Positions 44,397 to 55,535 of a DNA stretch of 64,000 nt are shown here, piece after piece. Source of the DNA: Deltaproteobacteria bacterium (GTDB lineage Bacteria; Myxococcota_A; Polyangia; Haliangiales; Haliangiaceae). Within the stretch, counting starts at the first letter, position 1. Each line of letters opens with the position of its first letter. The notes beneath the pieces were generated by a model. It was given only the letters and a program-made list of their open reading frames with translations. It did no database searches and was not told the origin of the DNA. The DNA lies in assembly GCA_025353585.1 (NCBI GenBank), contig JANXOM010000253.1, positions 1 to 64,000 of the forward strand, in the 5' to 3' direction. The position numbers and the translations under genes were made by a program.

Positions 44397-45134
44397 ATGA
44401 CCGCGATCTCGATCAAGACCGACGACGGCACCTGTCCCGCGTACACCTTCGAACCCGCGAGCGGCGGCGGCGCGCATCCCGCCGTCCTCGTCTTCATGGA
44501 CGGCGTGGGCATGCGCCCGGCGCTGCACCCGCTCGCGCAGCGCATCGCCGACCAGGGGTACTTCGTGTTGATGCCCGATCTGTTCTATCGCCTCGGGTCG
44601 TACACCGCGCCTGACATGCGCGACCTGTTCAAGACCCCCGAGGTCGGTAAGGCGTGGTTTGGCAAGGTGGCCGCCGTCGCGCAGCCCGCCATGGTCATGC
44701 GCGACGTGGCCGCATACCTAGCGTACCTCGACGCGCAGCCCACCGTGAAGCACGGCAAGCTCGGCGTCACCGGCTACTGCATGGGGGGGCGCCTCTCGTT
44801 CATCGCCGCGGCGACGTTTCCCGATCGCATCGCGGCGGCCGGGTCCTTCCACCCCGGCGGCCTCGTGAGCGATGACCCGGGGAGCCCGCACCTGCTCGCC
44901 TCGAAGATCAGCGGCCACGTCTACGTCGCCGCGGCGACCGAGGACGCGAACTTCACGGCCGCGCAGCAGCGGACGCTCGACGACGCGCTCGCCGCCGCGC
45001 ACGTGCCCCACACCGTCGTCGAATACCCGGCCAAGCACGGCTGGGTTCCCATCGACTCGCCGATCCACGACGCCGCGCAGGCCGATCGGCACTTCGACGC
45101 GCTGAAGGAACTGTTCGCCGCCACGCTCGGGTAG
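44397..45134 (+). CDS. Dienelactone hydrolase family protein
   Basis: LVFMDGVGMRPALHPLAQRIADQGYFVLMPDLFYR, GVTGYCMGGRLSFIAAA, KHGWVPIDSPIHD. Confidence 0.9.
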   Translation: MTAISIKTDDGTCPAYTFEPASGGGAHPAVLVFMDGVGMRPALHPLAQRIADQGYFVLMPDLFYRLGSYTAPDMRDLFKTPEVGKAWFGKVAAVAQPAMVMRDVAAYLAYLDAQPTVKHGKLGVTGYCMGGRLSFIAAATFPDRIAAAGSFHPGGLVSDDPGSPHLLASKISGHVYVAAATEDANFTAAQQRTLDDALAAAHVPHTVVEYPAKHGWVPIDSPIHDAAQADRHFDALKELFAATLG

Positions 45135-45275
45135 GCGAGCCACCGCGACCATGTAGGCAGCTGCGAAGCTCTCTGAGAAATCATCGCGAGCGGCCCCATC
45201 TCGCGGTCGTCTCTCGATCGGAATCCCCTCCCGTACCCCATCTCGTGAAGCGCGTTGTGTTTACATGGGCGCCCT

Positions 45276-48200
45276 ATGTCGACCGTGTTTCGTACTTATA
45301 GAGGCCGCGCTGTCGCGCTCGCGGCGTGCTTCACGCTCCTGTCTTGCAACTCGCCAACCGCGAGCACGCCGGACGCGCCGAGCACGTCCTCCGTCCAGGA
45401 AGCGCTCACCGGCCACGACGGTGCGCTCGCCGTCACCACGGCGAACACCGTCGTCAATCAGTACGCGGTGCTCGGCGCCGATGTCGTCGCGGGAGCCACG
45501 AGCATCACCATCACCAACGCGGGCGACTTCACGCAGGCGGGCGCGTTCACGTCCGCCTTCGGCGCCGGCGATCTCGTCATGCTGTACCAGCCGCAAGGCG
45601 CGGCGATCGATGCGACCGATTCGGCCGCGTACGGCGCGGTCGGCGCGGCGGGCGGCGGCGGTGCGGGCAGCTACGAGCTCGCGCACGTCACAAGCACGAG
45701 CAACGGCGGTACGACGATCGCGCTCGAGACGAGCTGCGGCGGGCTCGCGCACGCCTACACCACCGCGGGCCACACCGAGGTCGTGCGCGTCCCGCAGGCC
45801 ACCACGATCACTGTCTCGGGCACCGGCTCGATCACGGCGACCGCGTGGGACGGCGCGCGCGGCGGCGTCGTCGCGCTGCAGGCGCAGACGTCGATCACCG
45901 TCGACGGCGCCGGCATCGACGCGAGCGGCAAGGGCTTCCGCGGCGGCGTCATCGATAACCAGACAACCGGCCCGCCGGGCACCGTGACGTTCCGCGCCGC
46001 CGGCGCCGCCACGGGCGCCGAGAAGGGCGAGGGCATCGCGGGCTTCGAGGCGAAGTACGACGCTTCGTTCAACGGGCGCTTCGGGCGCGGGGCGCCGGCG
46101 AACGGCGGTGGCGGCGGCGATGCACACAACGCGGGCGGCGGCGGCGGCGCGAACGGCGACAGCGGTGACGCCTACACCGGCGCGGGCAACATGGACGGCA
46201 CGGTCACCGGCGCGTCGGCGTGGACGCTCGACCCGGACTTCATCAGCAACGGCAACGCGCTGACGACCTCCGCCGGCGGCGGGCGCGGCGGTTACACGTT
46301 CGCGGCCGCGAACAAGGACGCGCTGACGGTCGGGCCGGGCACGGCGACGTGGAACGGCGATAGCCGCCGCAGCGTCGGTGGCTTCGGCGGTCACCCGGTC
46401 GCGAACAACCCCTCCTCGCGCCTCTTCCTGGGCGGCGGCGGTGGCGCGGGCGATGGCAACAACAACTCCGCCGGTGCCGGCGGCGCGGGCGGCGGTCTCG
46501 TCCTCGTGATCGCCGACAGCGTCGCGGGCGGCGGCGCGATCCAGTCGAACGGTGCCGGCGGCTTGAACACGCACGGGACGAACAACGACGCGCCCGGCGG
46601 CGGCGGCGCGGGCGGAACGGTCGTCATCAAGGCGACGACGCTCGCGGGCGTCGCGCTCCACGCGGACGGCGGGGTGGGCGGTAACCAGCTCGCCATCAAT
46701 AACGAGTCTGAAGGTCCGGGCGGCGGCGGCGGTGGTGGCTACATCGCGGTCGCGGCCGGCTCCGTCACGCAGACCGCGCTCGGCGGCGCGGGCGGCACCT
46801 CGCTCAGCACGGGCGTCACCGAGTTCCCGACCAACGGCGCCACCGCCGGCGGCGCGGGCGAGACCAACGCGACGGTCACGAGCCTCGCGGTCTGCGCGGC
46901 CGATGACCTCTCGGTCACGGTCACCGATGGCGCCACCACGGCGACGCCGGGCACCGCCGTCACCTACACGATCGTCGTCACGAATGGCGGCGCGGACGTC
47001 ATCAACGGCGCCTCGCTGACCGACGCGTTCCCCGGCTCGCTCTCGGGCGTCACGTGGACCTGTACGGCGTCGGCGGGCTCCACGTGCTCCGCGGCCTCGG
47101 GAACCGGCGACCTCGCCGAGCTCGTCAAGCTCGCGCCGAGCGGAACGGTCACGTATGTCGTCACCGGCACGGTCGACTCCGCGGCGACGGGCACGCTGTC
47201 CGACACGGCGAAGATCGCCACGCCGGCCGGCATCACGGACGCAGCTCTCGCGAACAACACTGCGACGGACAGCGACACGCTCGTCGGCTCCGCGGACCTC
47301 TCGCTCGCGATCACCGACGCGCCGGACCCCGTCACGGTCAACGGTACGCTGACGTACTCGCTCGCCGCGACCAACGCGGGCCCCAGCGCGGCGCAGAGCC
47401 TCACGGTCACGGACACGCTCCCCGCCGGCACGACGTTCGTCAGCGCGAGCGGCGCGGGCTGGACCTGCAGCGCGCTCCTCCAGGTCGTGACGTGCACGCG
47501 CACGACGCTCGGCGTCACCACGTCCCCCGCCATCGCGATCGTCGTGACGGCGCCCGCCACCGCGGGAACGATCGTCGACAACGCCACGATCAGCGCGACC
47601 ACCGCCGATCCGAACAACGGCAACAACAGCGCGAGCGCGTCGACGACCGTCTCGGCGTCCGCGGATCTCTCGATCGCGATCACGGACGCGCCGGACCCCG
47701 TGGCCGCGGGCGGCACGCTGACCTACACCGTTGCCGTCAACAACGCCGGTCCCACCGCCGCGACGAGCGTCACCGTCACCGACACGCTCCCCGCCGGCGT
47801 GACCTTCGTCAGCGCCACGGGGACCGGCTGGACCTGCAGCGTCGCGGGCCAGACCGTCACGTGCACGCGGGCCACGGCCGCGGCCGGGGCGCAGCCGACC
47901 ATCGCCATCGTCGTCACCGCGCCCACCGCGGGCGGCTCGATCACCGACACCGGCACGGTCTCCGCGACGACCGCCGACCCGAGCGTCGGTAACAACACCG
48001 CCTCCCAGTCCACGACCGTCTCCGCCTCGGCCGACCTGGCGCTGACGATCAACGATTCGCCGGACCCGGTGACGGCGGGCGGCACGCTGACGTACACGCT
48101 CAGCTCGACGAACGGCGGCCCGAGCGTCGCGCAGACCGTCACGTTGACCGACACGCTCCCCGCGGGCACGACGTTCGTCAGCGCGAGCGGCGCGGGCTGG

Positions 48201-51200
48201 GCCTGCACCGTCGCCGGCCAGGTCGTGACCTGCACGCGCGCGACGGCGGCGGCCGGTGCCCAGCCGACGGTCACGATCGTCGTCACGGCGCCCACGACGG
48301 CCGGCACGCTCGTCGATACGGGCACGATCGGCGCGACGACGAGCGACCCGGACAGCAGCAACAACACCGCGACGGCCTCCACGACCGTCGCTGGCTCCGC
48401 GGATCTCGGCATCGCGATCAGCGACTCGCCGGACCCGGTCGCCGCGGGCGGTAACTTGACCTACACGGTCACCACGACCAACGGCGGCCCGAGCGCGGCC
48501 TCGACGGTCACGGTGACGGACACGCTCCCCGCGGGCGCGACGTTCGTCAGCGCGAGCGGCGCCGGCTGGGCCTGCACCCAGTCGGGCGGCGTCGTCACCT
48601 GCACGCGCGCCACCGCGGCCGCCGGCGCGCAGCCGCCGATCAGCATCGTGGTGACGGCCCCGGCCGCCGGCGGCTCGATCTCGGATAGCGCGACCATCGC
48701 GGCGACCACGCCGGACCCCGATCCGTCGAACAACAGCGCCACGCAGACCAGCACGGTCAGCGCGTCGGCGGACCTGGCGATCACGCTGAGCGACGCGCCG
48801 GACCCCGTCACGGCGGGCGGCACGCTGACCTACACCGCGACGGTCACCAACAACGGCCCGAGCGCGGCGACCAACGTCACCGTGACCGACACGCTCCCGG
48901 CGGGCGCCACGTTCGTCAGCGCGACCGGCACGGGCTGGTCGTGTAGCGCCGCCGGCCAGGTCATCACGTGCACGCGCGCCGCGGCGGCGGCCGGGGCCCA
49001 GCCGCCGATCGCGATCGACGTCACGGCGCCGACCGCGGGCGGCTCGATCACCGACACCGCGACCGTCGCGGCGACGACCGCGGATCCGAACGCGGGCAAC
49101 AACACCGCCTCGCAGTCGACGGCCGTGTCCGCGTCGGCGGATCTCGCCGTCGCGGTCGCGGACGCGCCGAGCCCCGTCACGGCGGGCGGCACGCTCACCT
49201 ACACCGTCAGCTCGACCAACGGCGGCCCGAGCGCGGCGGCGACGGTCACGCTGAGCGACACGATCCCGGCCGGCACGACGTTCGTGAGCGCGGCCGGCAC
49301 GGGCTGGGCGTGCTCGACGGCCGGCCAGCTCGTCACGTGCACGCGCGCGACGGCCGCGGTCGGCGCGCAGCCCGACGTCACCATCGCCGTGACGGTCCCG
49401 ACGACGGGCGGGACGATCGTCGACAACGCCTCGATCGGCGCGGTCACGAGCGATCCGGACGCCTCCAACAACACGGCGACGGTCAGCACCACGGTGACGG
49501 CCGCCGCGGATCTCGGCGTCGCCATCACCGACTCGCCCGACCCGGTCGCGGCGGGCGGCACGCTGACCTACGCCATCACCACGACCAACGCGGGCCCGAG
49601 CACGGCGTCGACCGTCACCGTGGCGGACACGCTCCCCGCGGGTGCGACGTTCGTCAGCGCGAGCGGCGCGGGTTGGACCTGCACGCAGACGGGCGGCGTC
49701 GTGACCTGCACGCGCGCCGCCGCGGCGACGGGCGCGCAGCCGCCGATCTCGATCGTGGTGACGGCCCCCACGGCGGGCGGCTCGATCACCGACAGCGCCA
49801 CCATCGGGGCGGTGACGGCGGATCCGGATCCGTCGAACAACAGCGCCACGCAGACGAGCACGGTCAGCGCGTCGGCCGATCTCGCGATCACGCTGACCGA
49901 CTCGCCGGACCCCGTCCCGGCGGACGGCGCGCTGACGTACACCGCGACCGTCACGAACAACGGCCCGAGCACCGCGACGAACGTCAGCGTGACGGACACG
50001 CTGCCGGCCGGCTCGACGTTCGTGAGCGCGACCGGCACCGGCTGGACCTGTTCGGCCGCGGGTCAGGTCGTCACCTGCACGATCGCGTCGGCGCCGGTCG
50101 GCGCGCAGCCGCCGATCAGCATCGTCATCGCGGCTCCGGCGAGCGGTGGCGCGATCTCCGATACGGCGCACGTCGCGGCGACGACCGCGGATCCGGCGGC
50201 CGGTAACAACACGGCCACCCAGACGACGACCGTGACGGGCGTGGCGGATCTCGCCATCGCGCTCACGGAGGCGCCGGACCCGGTGACCGCGGGCGGCACG
50301 CTGACCTACACGGCGACCGTGACCGACAACGGCCCGAGCACCGCGAGCACGGTCACCGTGACCAACACGCTGCCCGCCGGCTCCACGTTCGTGAGCGCGA
50401 CGGGCGCGGGCTGGACGTGCACCGAGGCGAGCCTCGTCGTGACCTGCACGCGCGCCGCGGCCGCCCTCGGGGCCGAGCCGCCGATCACGATCGTCGCGAC
50501 GGCGCCGACCGCGGGTGGCCCGATCACCGACAGCGCGTCGGTCGCCGCCCTCACGGCCGACCCGGATGCGACGAACAACACGACGAGCATCGATAGCAAC
50601 GTCACCGCGAGCAGCGACCTCGGCGTCACGGTGTCCGCGTCCCCCGATCCCGTCACCGCGGGCGGCACCATCACGTACACCGTCGACGTCACCGACGGCG
50701 GCCCGAGCGACGGCGGCACGATCACCGTGACCGACACGCTGCCCCCGGGCGCGACCTTCATCATGGCGAGCGGCACGGGCTGGACCTGCACGCAGGTCGG
50801 TCAGGTCGTCACGTGCACGGCGCCGTCGTCGGGCTCGGGCGCGCAGCCGCCGATCACCATCACCGCGACCGCGCCGACCGAGGGCGGCTCGGCGACGGAC
50901 ACCGTCACGGTCTCGTCGACCGTCGCCGACCCGAACCCGGTGAACAACACCGCGAGCACGACCACGACCGTCTCGGCGAGCTCCGATCTCGCGATCGCGG
51001 TGTCCGCGGCGCCGTCGCCCGTCAGCGTCAGCTCGGGTCTCACCTTCACGGTCGCCGTCACGAACCTCGGCCCGAGCACCTCGGACACGGTCACGGTGAC
51101 CGACACGCTGCCGGCGGGCGACACGTTCGTCAGCGCGAGCGGCACCGGCTGGACGTGCTCGGCCGTCGGCCAGGTGGTTACCTGCACGACGCCGTCGCTG

Positions 51201-53900
51201 CCGGCCGGCGCGGCGCCGCCGATCACGATCGTCACGACCTCGCCCGGCACGACCGGGTCCATCCTCGACACGGCGACCGTCGCCGCGCTGACGCCGGACC
51301 CCGCGACGGCCAACAACACGGCGACGGTCACCGTCGACGTGACGCAGAACGCGGACCTCGGCGTCACGATCACCGGCTCGCCGGACCCCGTGACGCCCGG
51401 CGGCACGCTGACCTACACGGTCGGCGTCACGAACAGCGGCCCCGCGACCGCGACGGGCGTCGTCGTCACCGACACGTTCCCCGACGGCGTCACGATCGTC
51501 AGCGCGGGCGGCCCGGGCTGGACCTGCACGATCACCGGCCAGACGGTGACCTGCACCGAGGCCAGCCAGCCGGCCGGCATGGCGCCGCCGATCACGATCG
51601 TCGTGACCACGCCCACCGGCAGTGGCGGGCTCTCGGACACCGTCACGGTCACCTCGGCCACGGCGGATCCGAACATGACGAACAACACGGCGACCTTCAC
51701 GAGCGCGACCGGCACGGACGCCGACCTCGCGATCGAAGTGCGCGAGGACGTCTCGACGGTCCAGGTCGCCGGCAAGGTGACCTACCAGCTGTTCATCTCG
51801 AACCTCGGCCCGGCCGCCGCGACGAACGTCGTCGTGACGGACGTGCTCCCCGGTGACAGCGTCGCGACGCTGACGGCGAGCGGCAACGGCTGGACCTGCG
51901 TGGCGGAGCGCTGCACCCGCGCGACGGTCGACGCCGGCGCGACGTCGTCCATCACGATCGTCGTGACGGCGCCGAGCTCGGTCGGCACGTTCACGAACAC
52001 GGGCACCGTGTCCTCCGACACGAGCGACCCCGTGCAGGCGAACAACACGTCGAGCATCACGATCGACGTCACGGACACCGGCTTCGGCGTCCGCGGCGGC
52101 GGTTGCAACACGTCGGGCAACGGCGGCGCCGGCGGCATGCTCGTCGTCCTGGGCGCCCTCGCGCTCACGGTGCGGCGAAGGCGGCTCGCGCTCGTCGCGG
52201 GGCTCGGCGCGGTCGCGCTCGTCACGCTGACGGCGGCGCCGGCGAGCGCGCAGATCGCGGGGAGCCCGCAGACGTTCACCGTCGAGCGGTTTCGCCTCGC
52301 GACGGATGGCGATGGCCTCATCAACGTCGAGTGGGCGGACGTCCTCCCGCGCGGGTCGTGGAACCTCGCGGCGTGGGTCGGCTACGCGAACGATCCGCTC
52401 GTCGTCTACGACAAGACCACCAACGAGCGCGTCGAGTCCCTCGTGCACCACCGCCTCGGTGGCAGCATCCAGGGCGCGGTCAGCGTCACGAAGTACCTGC
52501 AGCTCGGGCTCGAGGTGCCGATGATCTTCGATCAAACGAACCAGGGCATCGAGACGCTACCCGCGCCCGATTCGCCGAAGTTCGGGGACATCCGCTTCCT
52601 CCCGAAGCTCGTCCTCCGCAAGGGCGGCGGCGTCGGGCACGACCGCGTCAGCGTGGCCATCTTGCTCGGCATCACCGTGCCGAGCGGCGGCTCTTCGGGC
52701 TACGCGGGCGACGACAACGTCACGTTCCAGCCGGAGCTCCTCGTGTCGCGCCCGATCGGCGCGGTGCGGCTCTCCGGTAGCGTCGGCTACTACCTCCGCA
52801 AGGAGACGAAGTTCGCGAACCTCGACGTCGATGACGAGATCGACGTCCGCCTCGGCGTCGGCTATCGGTTCGCTGACCGCACGTCGGGCTGGCATGCACC
52901 GCTCGAGCTCGACGCGACGTTCGATGCCGCGACGCCCGCGAAGAGCCCGTTCTCGCACATCAACACCGACCCCTACGAGGTCGACATCGGCGCCGGCTAC
53001 AAGGTCCACCGCGACGTCACGGTGTACGGGTTGGGCGGGATGGGTATCGGCGCCGGCTTCGGCGCCCCGGACTGGCGCATCCTCGCCGGCGTGCGCTACA
53101 CGCACACGCCGCCCGCGCCGCCGAAGGTGATCCCGCCCAAGCCGGAGCCGGTCGTCGTGCCCGTCGTCGTGCCGGTCAAGGAAGACCCCGACACCGACGG
53201 CGATGGCCTCAAGGACAGCGTCGATAAGTGCCCGAACGAGCCCGAGGACAAGGACGGGTTCCAGGACGAGGACGGCTGCCCCGATCCGGACAATGACGCC
53301 GACGGCACGCCGGACGTGACGGACAAGTGCCCGCTCGTCGCCGGCCCGGTCGACAACGCGGGCTGCCCCGACCCGGATCGCGATGGCGACGGCGTCGTGG
53401 ATCGCCTCGACAACTGCCCCGACGAGAAGGGCACGCCGGAGAACGCGGGCTGCCCGACGAAGCAGCTCGTGAAGATCACGGACACGAAGCTCGAGATCCT
53501 CGAGAGCGTGTACTTCAAGCTCGACAAGGCCGTCATCGAGGCGCGCTCGTTCGCGCTCCTCGACAACGTCGCCCAGGTGCTCGGCTCGCACGACAAGCTC
53601 GTGATCCAGGTCGAGGGCCACACCGATAGCCAGGGCAAGCCGGCCTACAACAAGGACCTGTCGCAGCGGCGCGCGCAGGCGGTCGTCGACTACCTCGCGA
53701 AGAAGGGCGTCGACAAGGCGCGGCTCAAGCCGGTCGGCTACGGTCAGGACAACCCGGTCGCGGACAACAAGACCGCCGCTGGGCGCGCCCAGAACCGGCG
53801 CGTGGTGTTCCTCATCGTCACCGGCACCGAGGGCGCGAACATCGAGAACCACCAGCAGGGCGCGGGCGACGACACCAAGGAGCCGGAGAAGAAGAAATAG
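45276..53900 (+). CDS. Giant lipoprotein: Gly-rich region, 14 DUF11-like repeats, internal MYXO-CTERM-like signal, internal signal peptide, beta-barrel, TSP3 repeats, OmpA domain
   Basis: MSTVFRTYRGRAVALAACFTLLSC lipobox; repeats 'SADLxIAITDxPDPVxAGGTLTYTV...LPAGxTFVSAxGxGWTC...'; RGGGCNTSGNGGAGGMLVVLGALALTVRRRR; LALVAGLGAVALVTLTAAPASA; DTDGDGLKDSVDKCPNEPEDKDGFQDEDGCPD; OmpA C-terminus VQVEGHTDSQGKPAYNKDLSQRRAQAVVDYL. Confidence 0.9.
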   Translation: MSTVFRTYRGRAVALAACFTLLSCNSPTASTPDAPSTSSVQEALTGHDGALAVTTANTVVNQYAVLGADVVAGATSITITNAGDFTQAGAFTSAFGAGDLVMLYQPQGAAIDATDSAAYGAVGAAGGGGAGSYELAHVTSTSNGGTTIALETSCGGLAHAYTTAGHTEVVRVPQATTITVSGTGSITATAWDGARGGVVALQAQTSITVDGAGIDASGKGFRGGVIDNQTTGPPGTVTFRAAGAATGAEKGEGIAGFEAKYDASFNGRFGRGAPANGGGGGDAHNAGGGGGANGDSGDAYTGAGNMDGTVTGASAWTLDPDFISNGNALTTSAGGGRGGYTFAAANKDALTVGPGTATWNGDSRRSVGGFGGHPVANNPSSRLFLGGGGGAGDGNNNSAGAGGAGGGLVLVIADSVAGGGAIQSNGAGGLNTHGTNNDAPGGGGAGGTVVIKATTLAGVALHADGGVGGNQLAINNESEGPGGGGGGGYIAVAAGSVTQTALGGAGGTSLSTGVTEFPTNGATAGGAGETNATVTSLAVCAADDLSVTVTDGATTATPGTAVTYTIVVTNGGADVINGASLTDAFPGSLSGVTWTCTASAGSTCSAASGTGDLAELVKLAPSGTVTYVVTGTVDSAATGTLSDTAKIATPAGITDAALANNTATDSDTLVGSADLSLAITDAPDPVTVNGTLTYSLAATNAGPSAAQSLTVTDTLPAGTTFVSASGAGWTCSALLQVVTCTRTTLGVTTSPAIAIVVTAPATAGTIVDNATISATTADPNNGNNSASASTTVSASADLSIAITDAPDPVAAGGTLTYTVAVNNAGPTAATSVTVTDTLPAGVTFVSATGTGWTCSVAGQTVTCTRATAAAGAQPTIAIVVTAPTAGGSITDTGTVSATTADPSVGNNTASQSTTVSASADLALTINDSPDPVTAGGTLTYTLSSTNGGPSVAQTVTLTDTLPAGTTFVSASGAGWACTVAGQVVTCTRATAAAGAQPTVTIVVTAPTTAGTLVDTGTIGATTSDPDSSNNTATASTTVAGSADLGIAISDSPDPVAAGGNLTYTVTTTNGGPSAASTVTVTDTLPAGATFVSASGAGWACTQSGGVVTCTRATAAAGAQPPISIVVTAPAAGGSISDSATIAATTPDPDPSNNSATQTSTVSASADLAITLSDAPDPVTAGGTLTYTATVTNNGPSAATNVTVTDTLPAGATFVSATGTGWSCSAAGQVITCTRAAAAAGAQPPIAIDVTAPTAGGSITDTATVAATTADPNAGNNTASQSTAVSASADLAVAVADAPSPVTAGGTLTYTVSSTNGGPSAAATVTLSDTIPAGTTFVSAAGTGWACSTAGQLVTCTRATAAVGAQPDVTIAVTVPTTGGTIVDNASIGAVTSDPDASNNTATVSTTVTAAADLGVAITDSPDPVAAGGTLTYAITTTNAGPSTASTVTVADTLPAGATFVSASGAGWTCTQTGGVVTCTRAAAATGAQPPISIVVTAPTAGGSITDSATIGAVTADPDPSNNSATQTSTVSASADLAITLTDSPDPVPADGALTYTATVTNNGPSTATNVSVTDTLPAGSTFVSATGTGWTCSAAGQVVTCTIASAPVGAQPPISIVIAAPASGGAISDTAHVAATTADPAAGNNTATQTTTVTGVADLAIALTEAPDPVTAGGTLTYTATVTDNGPSTASTVTVTNTLPAGSTFVSATGAGWTCTEASLVVTCTRAAAALGAEPPITIVATAPTAGGPITDSASVAALTADPDATNNTTSIDSNVTASSDLGVTVSASPDPVTAGGTITYTVDVTDGGPSDGGTITVTDTLPPGATFIMASGTGWTCTQVGQVVTCTAPSSGSGAQPPITITATAPTEGGSATDTVTVSSTVADPNPVNNTASTTTTVSASSDLAIAVSAAPSPVSVSSGLTFTVAVTNLGPSTSDTVTVTDTLPAGDTFVSASGTGWTCSAVGQVVTCTTPSLPAGAAPPITIVTTSPGTTGSILDTATVAALTPDPATANNTATVTVDVTQNADLGVTITGSPDPVTPGGTLTYTVGVTNSGPATATGVVVTDTFPDGVTIVSAGGPGWTCTITGQTVTCTEASQPAGMAPPITIVVTTPTGSGGLSDTVTVTSATADPNMTNNTATFTSATGTDADLAIEVREDVSTVQVAGKVTYQLFISNLGPAAATNVVVTDVLPGDSVATLTASGNGWTCVAERCTRATVDAGATSSITIVVTAPSSVGTFTNTGTVSSDTSDPVQANNTSSITIDVTDTGFGVRGGGCNTSGNGGAGGMLVVLGALALTVRRRRLALVAGLGAVALVTLTAAPASAQIAGSPQTFTVERFRLATDGDGLINVEWADVLPRGSWNLAAWVGYANDPLVVYDKTTNERVESLVHHRLGGSIQGAVSVTKYLQLGLEVPMIFDQTNQGIETLPAPDSPKFGDIRFLPKLVLRKGGGVGHDRVSVAILLGITVPSGGSSGYAGDDNVTFQPELLVSRPIGAVRLSGSVGYYLRKETKFANLDVDDEIDVRLGVGYRFADRTSGWHAPLELDATFDAATPAKSPFSHINTDPYEVDIGAGYKVHRDVTVYGLGGMGIGAGFGAPDWRILAGVRYTHTPPAPPKVIPPKPEPVVVPVVVPVKEDPDTDGDGLKDSVDKCPNEPEDKDGFQDEDGCPDPDNDADGTPDVTDKCPLVAGPVDNAGCPDPDRDGDGVVDRLDNCPDEKGTPENAGCPTKQLVKITDTKLEILESVYFKLDKAVIEARSFALLDNVAQVLGSHDKLVIQVEGHTDSQGKPAYNKDLSQRRAQAVVDYLAKKGVDKARLKPVGYGQDNPVADNKTAAGRAQNRRVVFLIVTGTEGANIENHQQGAGDDTKEPEKKK
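46900..52080 (+). repeat. Tandem intragenic array of about 366-bp units (DUF11-like)
   Basis: 14 units counted by the ADL/SDL...PDPV start motif; unit about 122 aa. Confidence 0.85.
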
Positions 53901-53963: not shown

Positions 53964-55535
53964 GTGAACCTTCTTCGCGGCGCGGTGGCGGTCCTCCTCG
54001 TCGCGAGCTGTCGGTCAGAGGCTCACCCGGGCGGCGCAGACGGCGCCCTTCCCGACGGCCCGACCGACGGCCGGCAGGACAGCGGGCCACCGGAGCTCGA
54101 CGCGCCGAACCCGGACGGCTTCACGATCACGCCGGGCGCGCCCGACCGCTTCCTGCTCGTCGGCACGGTCGTCACCCCGGCCGTCACGCTCGACGGCGCC
54201 GTGCTCGTCGAGGGCAACACGATCACGTGCGTCGATACGGCGGCGACGTGCATGGCCGCGCCCGGGGCCGCCGGCGCTACGGTCATCGACACGAAGGGCA
54301 TCATCAGCCCGGGCCTCATCGACACGCACAACCACATCCTGTTCGACATCTTCGACAACGACGACTGGGGCCCGTCGCAGCTCTACATGGACCACGACCA
54401 GTGGCCGGCCGAGCCGCGCTACATCGCGATGCTCGACGTCAAGCAGTGCCTCGCCGATGACTCGCAGGGCAAGCCCGCGTGGTGCGGGCCCGCGGGCTAC
54501 GGCACGTCGGCCACGAGCCTGCGCTGCGAGATGGACAAGTTCGGCGAGCTCAAGGGGCTCATCTCGGGCACGACGAGCATCGTCGGGTTGCCGGGGACGA
54601 GCGCCGGCTGCTTCGGCTCGCTCGCGCGCTCGATCGACGTCGCGCAGAACGAGCTGCCGGTGGACAACGTGCAGACGAGCGCGCTGTTCCCACCGTCGGA
54701 TCCGAACGGCGTGTGCGCGAACTACGCGAACGGCAAGACCAAGGCGTTCCTCGTGCACGCGGGCGAAGGGCTCGATGCGAAGGCGCTGGGCGAGTTCGCG
54801 AAGCTCGGGACGTCGACGACGCCGCCGAACTGCCTCTACGCGCCGCAGACCGCGATCACGCACGGCACGGCGTTCACGAAGACCGAGCTCGATCAGATGG
54901 GCGCGGCCGGGATGAAGCTCATCTGGTCGCCCCAGTCGAACGTCACGCTGTATGGCACCACGGCGGATATTCCGACCGCGCTCGCGGCGGGCGTGACGGT
55001 GGCGATCGCGCCCGACTGGTCGATGGGCGGCAGCCAGAACATGCTCGACGAGCTGCGGTTCGGCGACGCGTGGGACGACGCGCACTGGAACAACCTGCTG
55101 ACGCCGCAGGACCTCGTGACGATGGGGACGGCGCACGCGGCGCAGGCGCTCGCGCTCGATGGCCAGCTCGGCTCGCTCGCGGTCGGGCACCTGGCTGACA
55201 TCTCGGTGTACGCGGGCGACGTGGCGCACCCGTTCGACGCGATCCTGGCGGCCAAGCCCACGAACGTGCGGCTCGTGATGGTGGGTGGCGTGGTGCTGTA
55301 CGGCGATCAGGGGCTGCGGTCCGCAGGGCCCGCGTCGCCCGGCTGCGAGGAGCTGGACGTGTGCGGCACGTCGAAGTTCCTGTGCGTCGCCACGAGCGAC
55401 AGCTCGAACAAGCTGAACCAGACCTTCGTGCAGATCGCGACGGTGCTCGGGACGGCGCTCGCTGCGGCGGATGCGGCGACGCCCGGCGACGGCTTCACGT
55501 TCGCGCCGCTGCCGCCGCTCGTGCATTGCGACTGA
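53964..55535 (+). CDS. Amidohydrolase family lipoprotein
   Basis: Lipobox LLVASC; GLIDTHNHILFD, FLVHAGEG, TAITHGTAF, VTVAIAPDWSMGGSQNML. Confidence 0.85.
   Translation: MNLLRGAVAVLLVASCRSEAHPGGADGALPDGPTDGRQDSGPPELDAPNPDGFTITPGAPDRFLLVGTVVTPAVTLDGAVLVEGNTITCVDTAATCMAAPGAAGATVIDTKGIISPGLIDTHNHILFDIFDNDDWGPSQLYMDHDQWPAEPRYIAMLDVKQCLADDSQGKPAWCGPAGYGTSATSLRCEMDKFGELKGLISGTTSIVGLPGTSAGCFGSLARSIDVAQNELPVDNVQTSALFPPSDPNGVCANYANGKTKAFLVHAGEGLDAKALGEFAKLGTSTTPPNCLYAPQTAITHGTAFTKTELDQMGAAGMKLIWSPQSNVTLYGTTADIPTALAAGVTVAIAPDWSMGGSQNMLDELRFGDAWDDAHWNNLLTPQDLVTMGTAHAAQALALDGQLGSLAVGHLADISVYAGDVAHPFDAILAAKPTNVRLVMVGGVVLYGDQGLRSAGPASPGCEELDVCGTSKFLCVATSDSSNKLNQTFVQIATVLGTALAAADAATPGDGFTFAPLPPLVHCD

What the first reader, a model, noticed from the sequence alone, without database searches (positions are those of the whole stretch)
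52095..52262. MYXO-CTERM-like sorting signal fused in frame to a Sec signal peptide: possible bacterial surface polyprotein
Seen: the DUF11-like repeats end in RGGGCNTSGNGGAGGMLVVLGALALTVRRRR (Cys motif, TM helix, Arg cluster). MYXO-CTERM proteins normally stop there. Here no stop follows, and the same RRRR becomes the n-region of VRRRRLALVAGLGAVALVTLTAAPASA|QIA, a textbook type I signal peptide. The mature part is about 549 aa with beta-barrel-like region, Pro-rich linker, TSP3 repeats and OmpA peptidoglycan-binding domain. Established: MYXO-CTERM tails are processed at the cell surface in myxobacteria, and in M. xanthus TraA (MYXO-CTERM) works with TraB (OmpA-type barrel) from adjacent genes. 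Inference: one translation product is cleaved twice, giving a surface-anchored adhesin and its own OM barrel partner at 1:1. The resemblance to TraA/TraB is architectural only.
Basis: partly seen in the sequence, partly recalled or inferred. Interest (0 to 1): 0.85.

Follow-up and report, generated by a model that had tools for sequence, protein, structure and literature searches.

The report
Fused surface adhesin–barrel polyprotein of myxobacteria
One giant gene in a myxobacterium encodes a sticky surface protein joined in frame to its likely outer-membrane partner by a built-in pair of cutting signals; the same join recurs across the phylum, so a design published for one protein and called rare is common and can be tested in the laboratory.

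Summary
The 2881-codon ORF 45255-53900 (most likely start ATG 45276) runs without a stop from 14 DUF11 repeats through an internal MYXO-CTERM (Cys 52104, TM helix, RRRR 52173-52184), whose Arg cluster doubles as the n-region of a type I signal peptide (ASA|Q, Q at 52251). A 12-stranded barrel, TSP3 repeats and an OmpA domain follow (AlphaFold pLDDT 90).

It is not an artefact. I found 67 homologous barrel ORFs with the same in-frame junction in at least 16 family-level groups of Myxococcota, including a single-contig genome. About 61 relatives are separate genes, several directly after a MYXO-CTERM gene with a 4-bp ATGA/GTGA overlap, as in traA-traB. One genome (G036) carries this adhesin head and the barrel as two genes 21 nt apart. 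The fused or split state changed at least 9 times on the tree. Fused genes lack the ribosome-binding site that split ones have.

There is a precedent: M. xanthus MXAN_5598 was described so in mBio 2025, as an atypical case. New here are the breadth, the conserved Arg-cluster/signal-peptide hinge, the repeated fusion and fission, and an N-terminal lipoprotein signal. Cleavage is still inferred.

The parts
45276..45347 (+). N-terminal lipoprotein-type signal peptide, MSTVFRTYRGRAVALAACFTLLSC, lipobox LLSC (alternative LAAC)
   Evidence: sequence; orthologous heads start with FAAC, LAAC, AAGC and VGC motifs; processing inferred
45348..46910 (+). Adhesin head, Gly-rich; aa 52-347 resemble the N-terminal domain of gliding protein AgmC
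   Evidence: NF047640 171.6 bits, below its cut-off of 275; orthologues 52-68% identical; AlphaFold model poor, pLDDT 54
46911..52080 (+). About 14 DUF11 Ig-like repeats of ~123 aa
   Evidence: PF01345 938.7 bits, 14 stretches; tandem period 369 nt
52092..52184 (+). Internal MYXO-CTERM: GGGC (Cys 52104-52106), TM helix, RRRR 52173-52184
   Evidence: TIGR03382 25.8 bits > 15.85; TIGR03901 20.1 vs 20; same segment in 63 fused homologues
52170..52250 (+). Internal type I signal peptide VRRRRLALVAGLGAVALVTLTAAPASA, n-region shared with the MYXO-CTERM Arg cluster
   Evidence: sequence; AxA|Q conserved against shuffled controls; separately encoded relatives carry it as a normal N-terminal signal peptide
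52251..53897 (+). Mature C-terminal product of 549 aa (from Gln), stop TAA 53898-53900
   Evidence: AlphaFold pLDDT 90.1, 60-row alignment
52359..53105 (+). 12-stranded beta-barrel
   Evidence: 12 long strands at residues 37-285; Foldseek: FapF 5o68 TMt 0.59-0.65, COG4313 channel 4rl8 TMt 0.69
53106..53470 (+). Pro-rich linker and TSP3 calcium-type repeats
   Evidence: PF02412 28.3 bits; sequence
53511..53798 (+). OmpA peptidoglycan-binding domain
   Evidence: PF00691 83.6 bits; Foldseek 5wtp TMt 0.85

Best explanation
The ORF is a secreted precursor of two surface proteins. The N-terminal half, a lipoprotein-type signal, an adhesin head and a DUF11 stalk, is exported by Sec. The MYXO-CTERM helix stops it in the inner membrane with RRRR in the cytoplasm. 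The next hydrophobic segment re-enters the membrane as a signal peptide and exports the C-terminal half. A myxosortase cuts at the Cys and frees a lipid-anchored adhesin for the cell surface (in M. xanthus by type II secretion). Signal peptidase I cuts at ASA|Q and frees a 549-residue protein that folds as a 12-stranded outer-membrane barrel with an OmpA peptidoglycan-binding tail. Both halves are thus made together at 1:1, probably as partners like TraA and TraB. Fusion replaces the translational coupling of the 4-bp-overlap operons seen in relatives. Shown: the intact frame, the conserved junction, the split relatives, the fold model, and a myxosortase-family protease and a T2SS secretin in the genome. 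Inferred: topology, both cleavages, surface location, partnership.
For: Open frame and motif scores. 67 fused homologues in at least 16 family-level groups, including single-contig genome G199. The closest whole-length relatives, G001 and G012, are also fused. G036 carries the same head + DUF11 + MYXO-CTERM ending in RRRRGR-stop, then 21 nt later in the same frame a Shine-Dalgarno-like sequence and GTG starting a barrel-TSP3-OmpA gene (45% and 29% identity to the two halves). Split relatives with ATGA/GTGA overlaps: L090, L099, L147, L188, L190, L210. AxA|Q conserved. TIGR03901 matches (E <= 0.01) in 50 of 64 internal segments. Full SD (5/5) plus start codon: fused 4.5% (shuffled 5.6%), split 42.4% (shuffled 10.4%). 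Mrt_core protease 108 bits, cut-off 100. GspD over cut-off. Barrel + OmpA fold. Published: MrtX cleaves MYXO-CTERM proteins, and the internal MYXO-CTERM in MXAN_5598 is proposed to be processed (PMC11980579). MXAN_5598 product found in outer-membrane vesicles (PMC4158809).
Against: There are no protein data, and neither cleavage is shown for any internal MYXO-CTERM of this type. SignalP and TMHMM were not available. TIGR03901 is only at its cut-off for the window. My segment extraction for the Cys alignment required a Cys, so its invariance is partly by construction (the GGG before it is not). The internal signal peptide could act as an uncleaved signal anchor. Surface display by T2SS is extrapolated from M. 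xanthus.
Confidence: 0.72

Rival explanations
1. Only signal peptidase I acts. The internal MYXO-CTERM is a vestige of the ancestral adhesin and now serves as a plain stop-transfer helix, so the adhesin stays anchored in the inner membrane while the barrel is released.
For: MYXO-CTERM model TIGR03901 scores only around its cut-off in the window. Some members have weak Arg clusters, such as L045 and L076 with RRAH.
Against: The GGGC motif and Arg cluster persist across 64 diverged segments and TIGR03901 matches 50 of them. 26 of 29 checked genomes carry a myxosortase-core protease over cut-off. An adhesin left in the inner membrane would have no obvious use.
Confidence: 0.13
2. The precursor is never cleaved and works as one trans-envelope protein, hairpin in the inner membrane and barrel in the outer membrane.
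For: One continuous ORF; the OmpA domain could tether the protein to peptidoglycan.
Against: AxA|Q is kept far above shuffled controls. Only 36 residues lie between the cleavage site and the first barrel strand, about 12 nm if fully extended, short for a periplasm (inference). Split relatives make the same two parts as separate proteins.
Confidence: 0.06
3. The barrel half is translated separately from an internal start such as GTG 52170.
For: About half of the fused members have an ATG or GTG near the Arg cluster; GTG 52170 is in frame.
Against: No Shine-Dalgarno enrichment in fused members against shuffles, clear enrichment in split members; no ATG with a full SD in any of 67 fused members, against 30% of split ones. 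Start position is not conserved.
Confidence: 0.05
4. Sequencing or assembly error removed a stop or frameshift.
For: The window comes from a 437-contig draft genome.
Against: Same junction in the G001 and G012 orthologues and in 64 other loci, including two in single-contig genome G199. Mean chance of an open 60-codon junction is 0.35 per locus under shuffling.
Confidence: 0.01

Closest known systems
MXAN_5598 of Myxococcus xanthus (PMC11980579, mBio 2025)
   Same: Large adhesin, internal MYXO-CTERM, then OM beta-barrel and OmpA domains in one ORF; the authors propose gene fusion and processing of the N-terminal part.
   Different: Described as one atypical case, beside ftsA/ftsZ; the discussion read here does not mention a second, internal signal peptide. 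Here the neighbours differ, the passenger is head + DUF11 with a lipoprotein signal, and the architecture is widespread. Direct sequence comparison was not possible.
TraA/TraB outer membrane exchange pair
   Same: MYXO-CTERM adhesin followed by barrel-TSP3-OmpA protein; the 4-bp overlap operon equals the split state of this family; a near-TraB barrel is matched by the family profile (86 bits).
   Different: Two genes; no PA14 domain in the window adhesin; TraB model score 254 of 700.
MYXO-CTERM / myxosortase sorting
   Same: Cys motif, TM helix, Arg cluster; myxosortase-family protease in the genome.
   Different: Not at the C-terminus: 571 codons follow.
FapF and COG4313 12-stranded channels
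   Same: Barrel fold by Foldseek.
   Different: Only 12-16% sequence identity in the structural alignment; no TSP3/OmpA tail in the matched region; transport function not implied.

Membership tests
MYXO-CTERM proteins (TIGR03901/TIGR03382) | Cys motif + TM helix + Arg cluster at model cut-off | tested here: met
   TIGR03382 25.8 > 15.85; TIGR03901 20.1 vs 20, borderline
MYXO-CTERM proteins (TIGR03901/TIGR03382) | Located at the C-terminus of the ORF | tested here: not met
   No stop; 571 codons follow RRRR before the stop
MYXO-CTERM proteins (TIGR03901/TIGR03382) | Myxosortase encoded in the genome | tested here: met
   Mrt_core NF040914 108-109.5 bits, cut-off 100; MrtX/MrtC/MrtP models below their own cut-offs
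MYXO-CTERM proteins (TIGR03901/TIGR03382) | Cleavage and lipidation at the Cys | not testable with these tools
   needs protein chemistry
Type I signal peptide | Positive n-region, hydrophobic core, AxA site | tested here: met
   sequence; conservation against shuffles; SignalP not available
MXAN_5598-type fusion | Adhesin + internal MYXO-CTERM + OM barrel + OmpA in one ORF | tested here: met
   description in PMC11980579
MXAN_5598-type fusion | Gene next to ftsA/ftsZ | tested here: not met
   ftsZ is on contig C103, window on C238; no listed barrel hit lies beside ftsZ
MXAN_5598-type fusion | Sequence homology to MXAN_5598 | not tested
   M. xanthus genome not reached in the held collections
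TraB | NF033763 at curated cut-off of 700 bits | tested here: not met
   254 bits, best stretch in the TSP3/OmpA part
TraB | OM barrel + TSP3 + OmpA | tested here: met
   TraB layout from PMC6372800
TraA | PA14 domain | tested here: not met
   no PA14 among Pfam hits
OmpA family (PF00691) | score above gathering cut-off | tested here: met
   83.6 > 27.2 bits

The most novel reading that the evidence does not exclude
A phylum-wide class of bacterial surface polyproteins in which the 12-stranded barrel is not just a partner but the dedicated outer-membrane exit or display platform for the adhesin made on the same chain, so that the fusion is a self-contained surface display system independent of type II secretion.
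Probability: 0.1. Interest if true: 0.85.

Novelty: new member of a known kind. Interest (0 to 1): 0.6.

Why it matters
Bacterial C-terminal sorting signals normally sit at the end of the chain. Here dozens of genes across Myxococcota place one in the middle and reuse its Arg cluster as the start of a second signal peptide. If cleavage is confirmed, these are true secreted polyproteins, unusual in bacteria, and a natural test of whether myxosortase accepts internal substrates. The repeated switch between a 4-bp-overlap operon and an in-frame fusion is a clear case of how translational coupling turns into fusion. The conserved pairing also points to many undiscovered adhesin-barrel pairs of the TraA/TraB kind.

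Tried and rejected
Assembly artefact: rejected by homologues. Internal start at GTG 52170: rejected by the start/SD comparison; a first count used unequal search windows and was redone. Membership in TraB or TraA: rejected by curated cut-offs and missing PA14. MXAN_5598 orthology through ftsZ neighbourhood: no ftsZ near any locus; the TraB model found no genome over its cut-off in the phylum sample, so no Myxococcus-like genome was at hand; a search centred on Anaeromyxobacter was not accepted by the tool. Structure of the adhesin head: too poor to use, pLDDT 54. DNA-level search in plasmids: no match. Literature on AgmC: none in the library. The first automatic classification missed the window itself and called L148 fused by mistake; both were corrected by eye.
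Full report
OBSERVATION. The ORF 45255-53900 (+) is open for 2881 codons. The most likely start is ATG 45276, followed by a lipoprotein-type signal ending LLSC. A head domain resembling AgmC-N (171.6 bits, cut-off 275) precedes 14 DUF11 repeats. At 52092-52184 lies R-GGGC-...-RRRR, which scores 25.8 bits with TIGR03382 (cut-off 15.85) and 20.1 with TIGR03901 (cut-off 20). No stop follows. VRRRRLALVAGLGAVALVTLTAAPASA|QIAG reads as a signal peptide, and TSP3 and OmpA domains follow.

NOT CHANCE, NOT ARTEFACT. A search with the C-terminal half in 56 relatives found the closest hits mostly in open frames of 1400-3700 aa. Reading the junctions showed the same order throughout the fused members: GGGC, hydrophobic segment, Arg cluster, second hydrophobic segment, AxA|Q, then the conserved mature start. 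Profile A1 of the barrel found the domain in 142 of 189 phylum genomes and in named Kofleriaceae, Myxococcales and other Myxococcota drafts. After de-duplication and checking by eye I count 67 fused ORFs and 61 separate ones. Fused genes occur in at least 16 family-level groups, twice in the single-contig genome G199 (L168, L169). The nearest named relatives suggest that the window organism is a Kofleriaceae-type myxobacterium.

THE SPLIT STATE. In several separate relatives the preceding gene ends in MYXO-CTERM and overlaps the barrel gene by ATGA or GTGA: L090, L099, L147, L188, L190 and a near-TraB pair L210. Others have short gaps (L097, L116, L193). The published traA-traB genes also overlap by four bases (PMC3325183). 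Most telling is G036: the same adhesin head and one DUF11 repeat, MYXO-CTERM ending RRRRGR-TGA, 21 nt, then in the same frame a Shine-Dalgarno-like sequence and GTG starting a 574-aa barrel-TSP3-OmpA gene. The two genes are 45% and 29% identical to the two halves of the window protein. This is the unfused form of the same protein.

HISTORY. On an IQ-TREE tree of 84 barrel domains the fused/split state needs 16 changes, of which well-supported branches force at least 9. The direction is not inferred. L090 (split) is sister to L040 (fused) with 100/98 support.

TESTS OF THE JUNCTION. In fused members [AV]xA precedes the mature start in 91% against 44% in local shuffles, and [AV]xA|Q in 45% against 3.3%; split members, where it is a normal N-terminal signal peptide, give 97% and 46%. 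A full Shine-Dalgarno with a start codon is no commoner in fused junctions than in codon shuffles (4.5 vs 5.6%), but clearly enriched in split genes (42.4 vs 10.4%). Internal initiation is therefore unlikely. Of 64 internal MYXO-CTERM segments, TIGR03901 matches 50 and TIGR03382 28 at E <= 0.01. The extraction required a Cys, so its invariance is partly by construction.

STRUCTURE. The mature C-terminal part was modelled with 60 sequences at mean pLDDT 90.1: 12 long strands, then TSP3 and OmpA. Foldseek matches FapF (TMt about 0.6) and the COG4313 channel (0.69) for the barrel and OmpA domains for the tail. TraB is described as OM barrel, TSP3 and OmpA (PMC6372800), and profile A1 matches a near-TraB (L210, 612 of 700 bits to the TraB model) at 86 bits. 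The window protein itself reaches only 254 of 700 bits with the TraB model, so it is a homologue, not a TraB.

PASSENGERS. The N-terminal parts vary: DUF11, DUF4215/myxo_disulf_rpt, TSP3 and cadherin. The junction and barrel stay. Among 25 fused proteins with complete 5' ends about half show a lipobox and the rest mostly a type I signal (rough regex).

MACHINERY. The genome holds a myxosortase-family protease (Mrt_core 108 bits, cut-off 100) and a T2SS secretin. In M. xanthus MrtX cuts MYXO-CTERM proteins, and T2SS carries them to the surface (PMC11980579).

MECHANISM. Topology follows from the sequence: passenger in the periplasm, first helix outside-in, RRRR in the cytoplasm, second helix inside-out, barrel in the periplasm. 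The RRRR satisfies the positive-inside rule for both. I expect cleavage by myxosortase at the Cys and by signal peptidase I at ASA|Q, giving adhesin and barrel at 1:1. The cuts are inferred, not shown.

PRIOR KNOWLEDGE. The mBio 2025 myxosortase paper already notes one such protein, MXAN_5598, as atypical, suggests gene fusion and processing, and compares it with TraA + TraB. Its product, named OmpA domain protein, was detected in outer-membrane vesicles (PMC4158809). The kind is thus known; the present work shows it to be widespread, with a conserved hinge and repeated fusion/fission. The window gene is not beside ftsZ, unlike MXAN_5598.

VERDICT. Real, conserved, and most likely a doubly processed surface polyprotein; a new member of a kind known from one published example, with a much wider distribution than reported.

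Noticed in passing
window 45261-52535 (-): A 2424-aa open frame antisense to the DUF11 gene; typical mirror frame of 73-75% GC DNA, no evidence for a gene.
   Followed up: no
L062 (G000:C246): Second fused paralogue in the same genome, open frame 1823 aa, non-DUF11 passenger, distant barrel (69 bits).
   Followed up: partly
L045 junction: A Ser-Thr microsatellite-like tract (STSTSTSTSPSTSTST) lies in the cytoplasmic loop between the two hydrophobic segments, so the loop tolerates length change.
   Followed up: no
L210 (G036:C117): A near-TraB gene (612 of 700 bits) overlapping by GTGA an upstream ORF that ends in a MYXO-CTERM-like tail.
   Followed up: partly
window 45336-45347: Lipobox at the N-terminus, so the adhesin could carry lipid at both ends (N-terminal lipoprotein and C-terminal MYXO-CTERM).
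   Followed up: partly
window 53964-55535 and 44397-45134: Neighbours: a lipoprotein-like amidohydrolase downstream and a YghX-like hydrolase gene upstream; no obvious functional link.
   Followed up: partly
L181 and L198: Tandem pairs of solo barrel-OmpA genes on one contig in some genomes.
   Followed up: no
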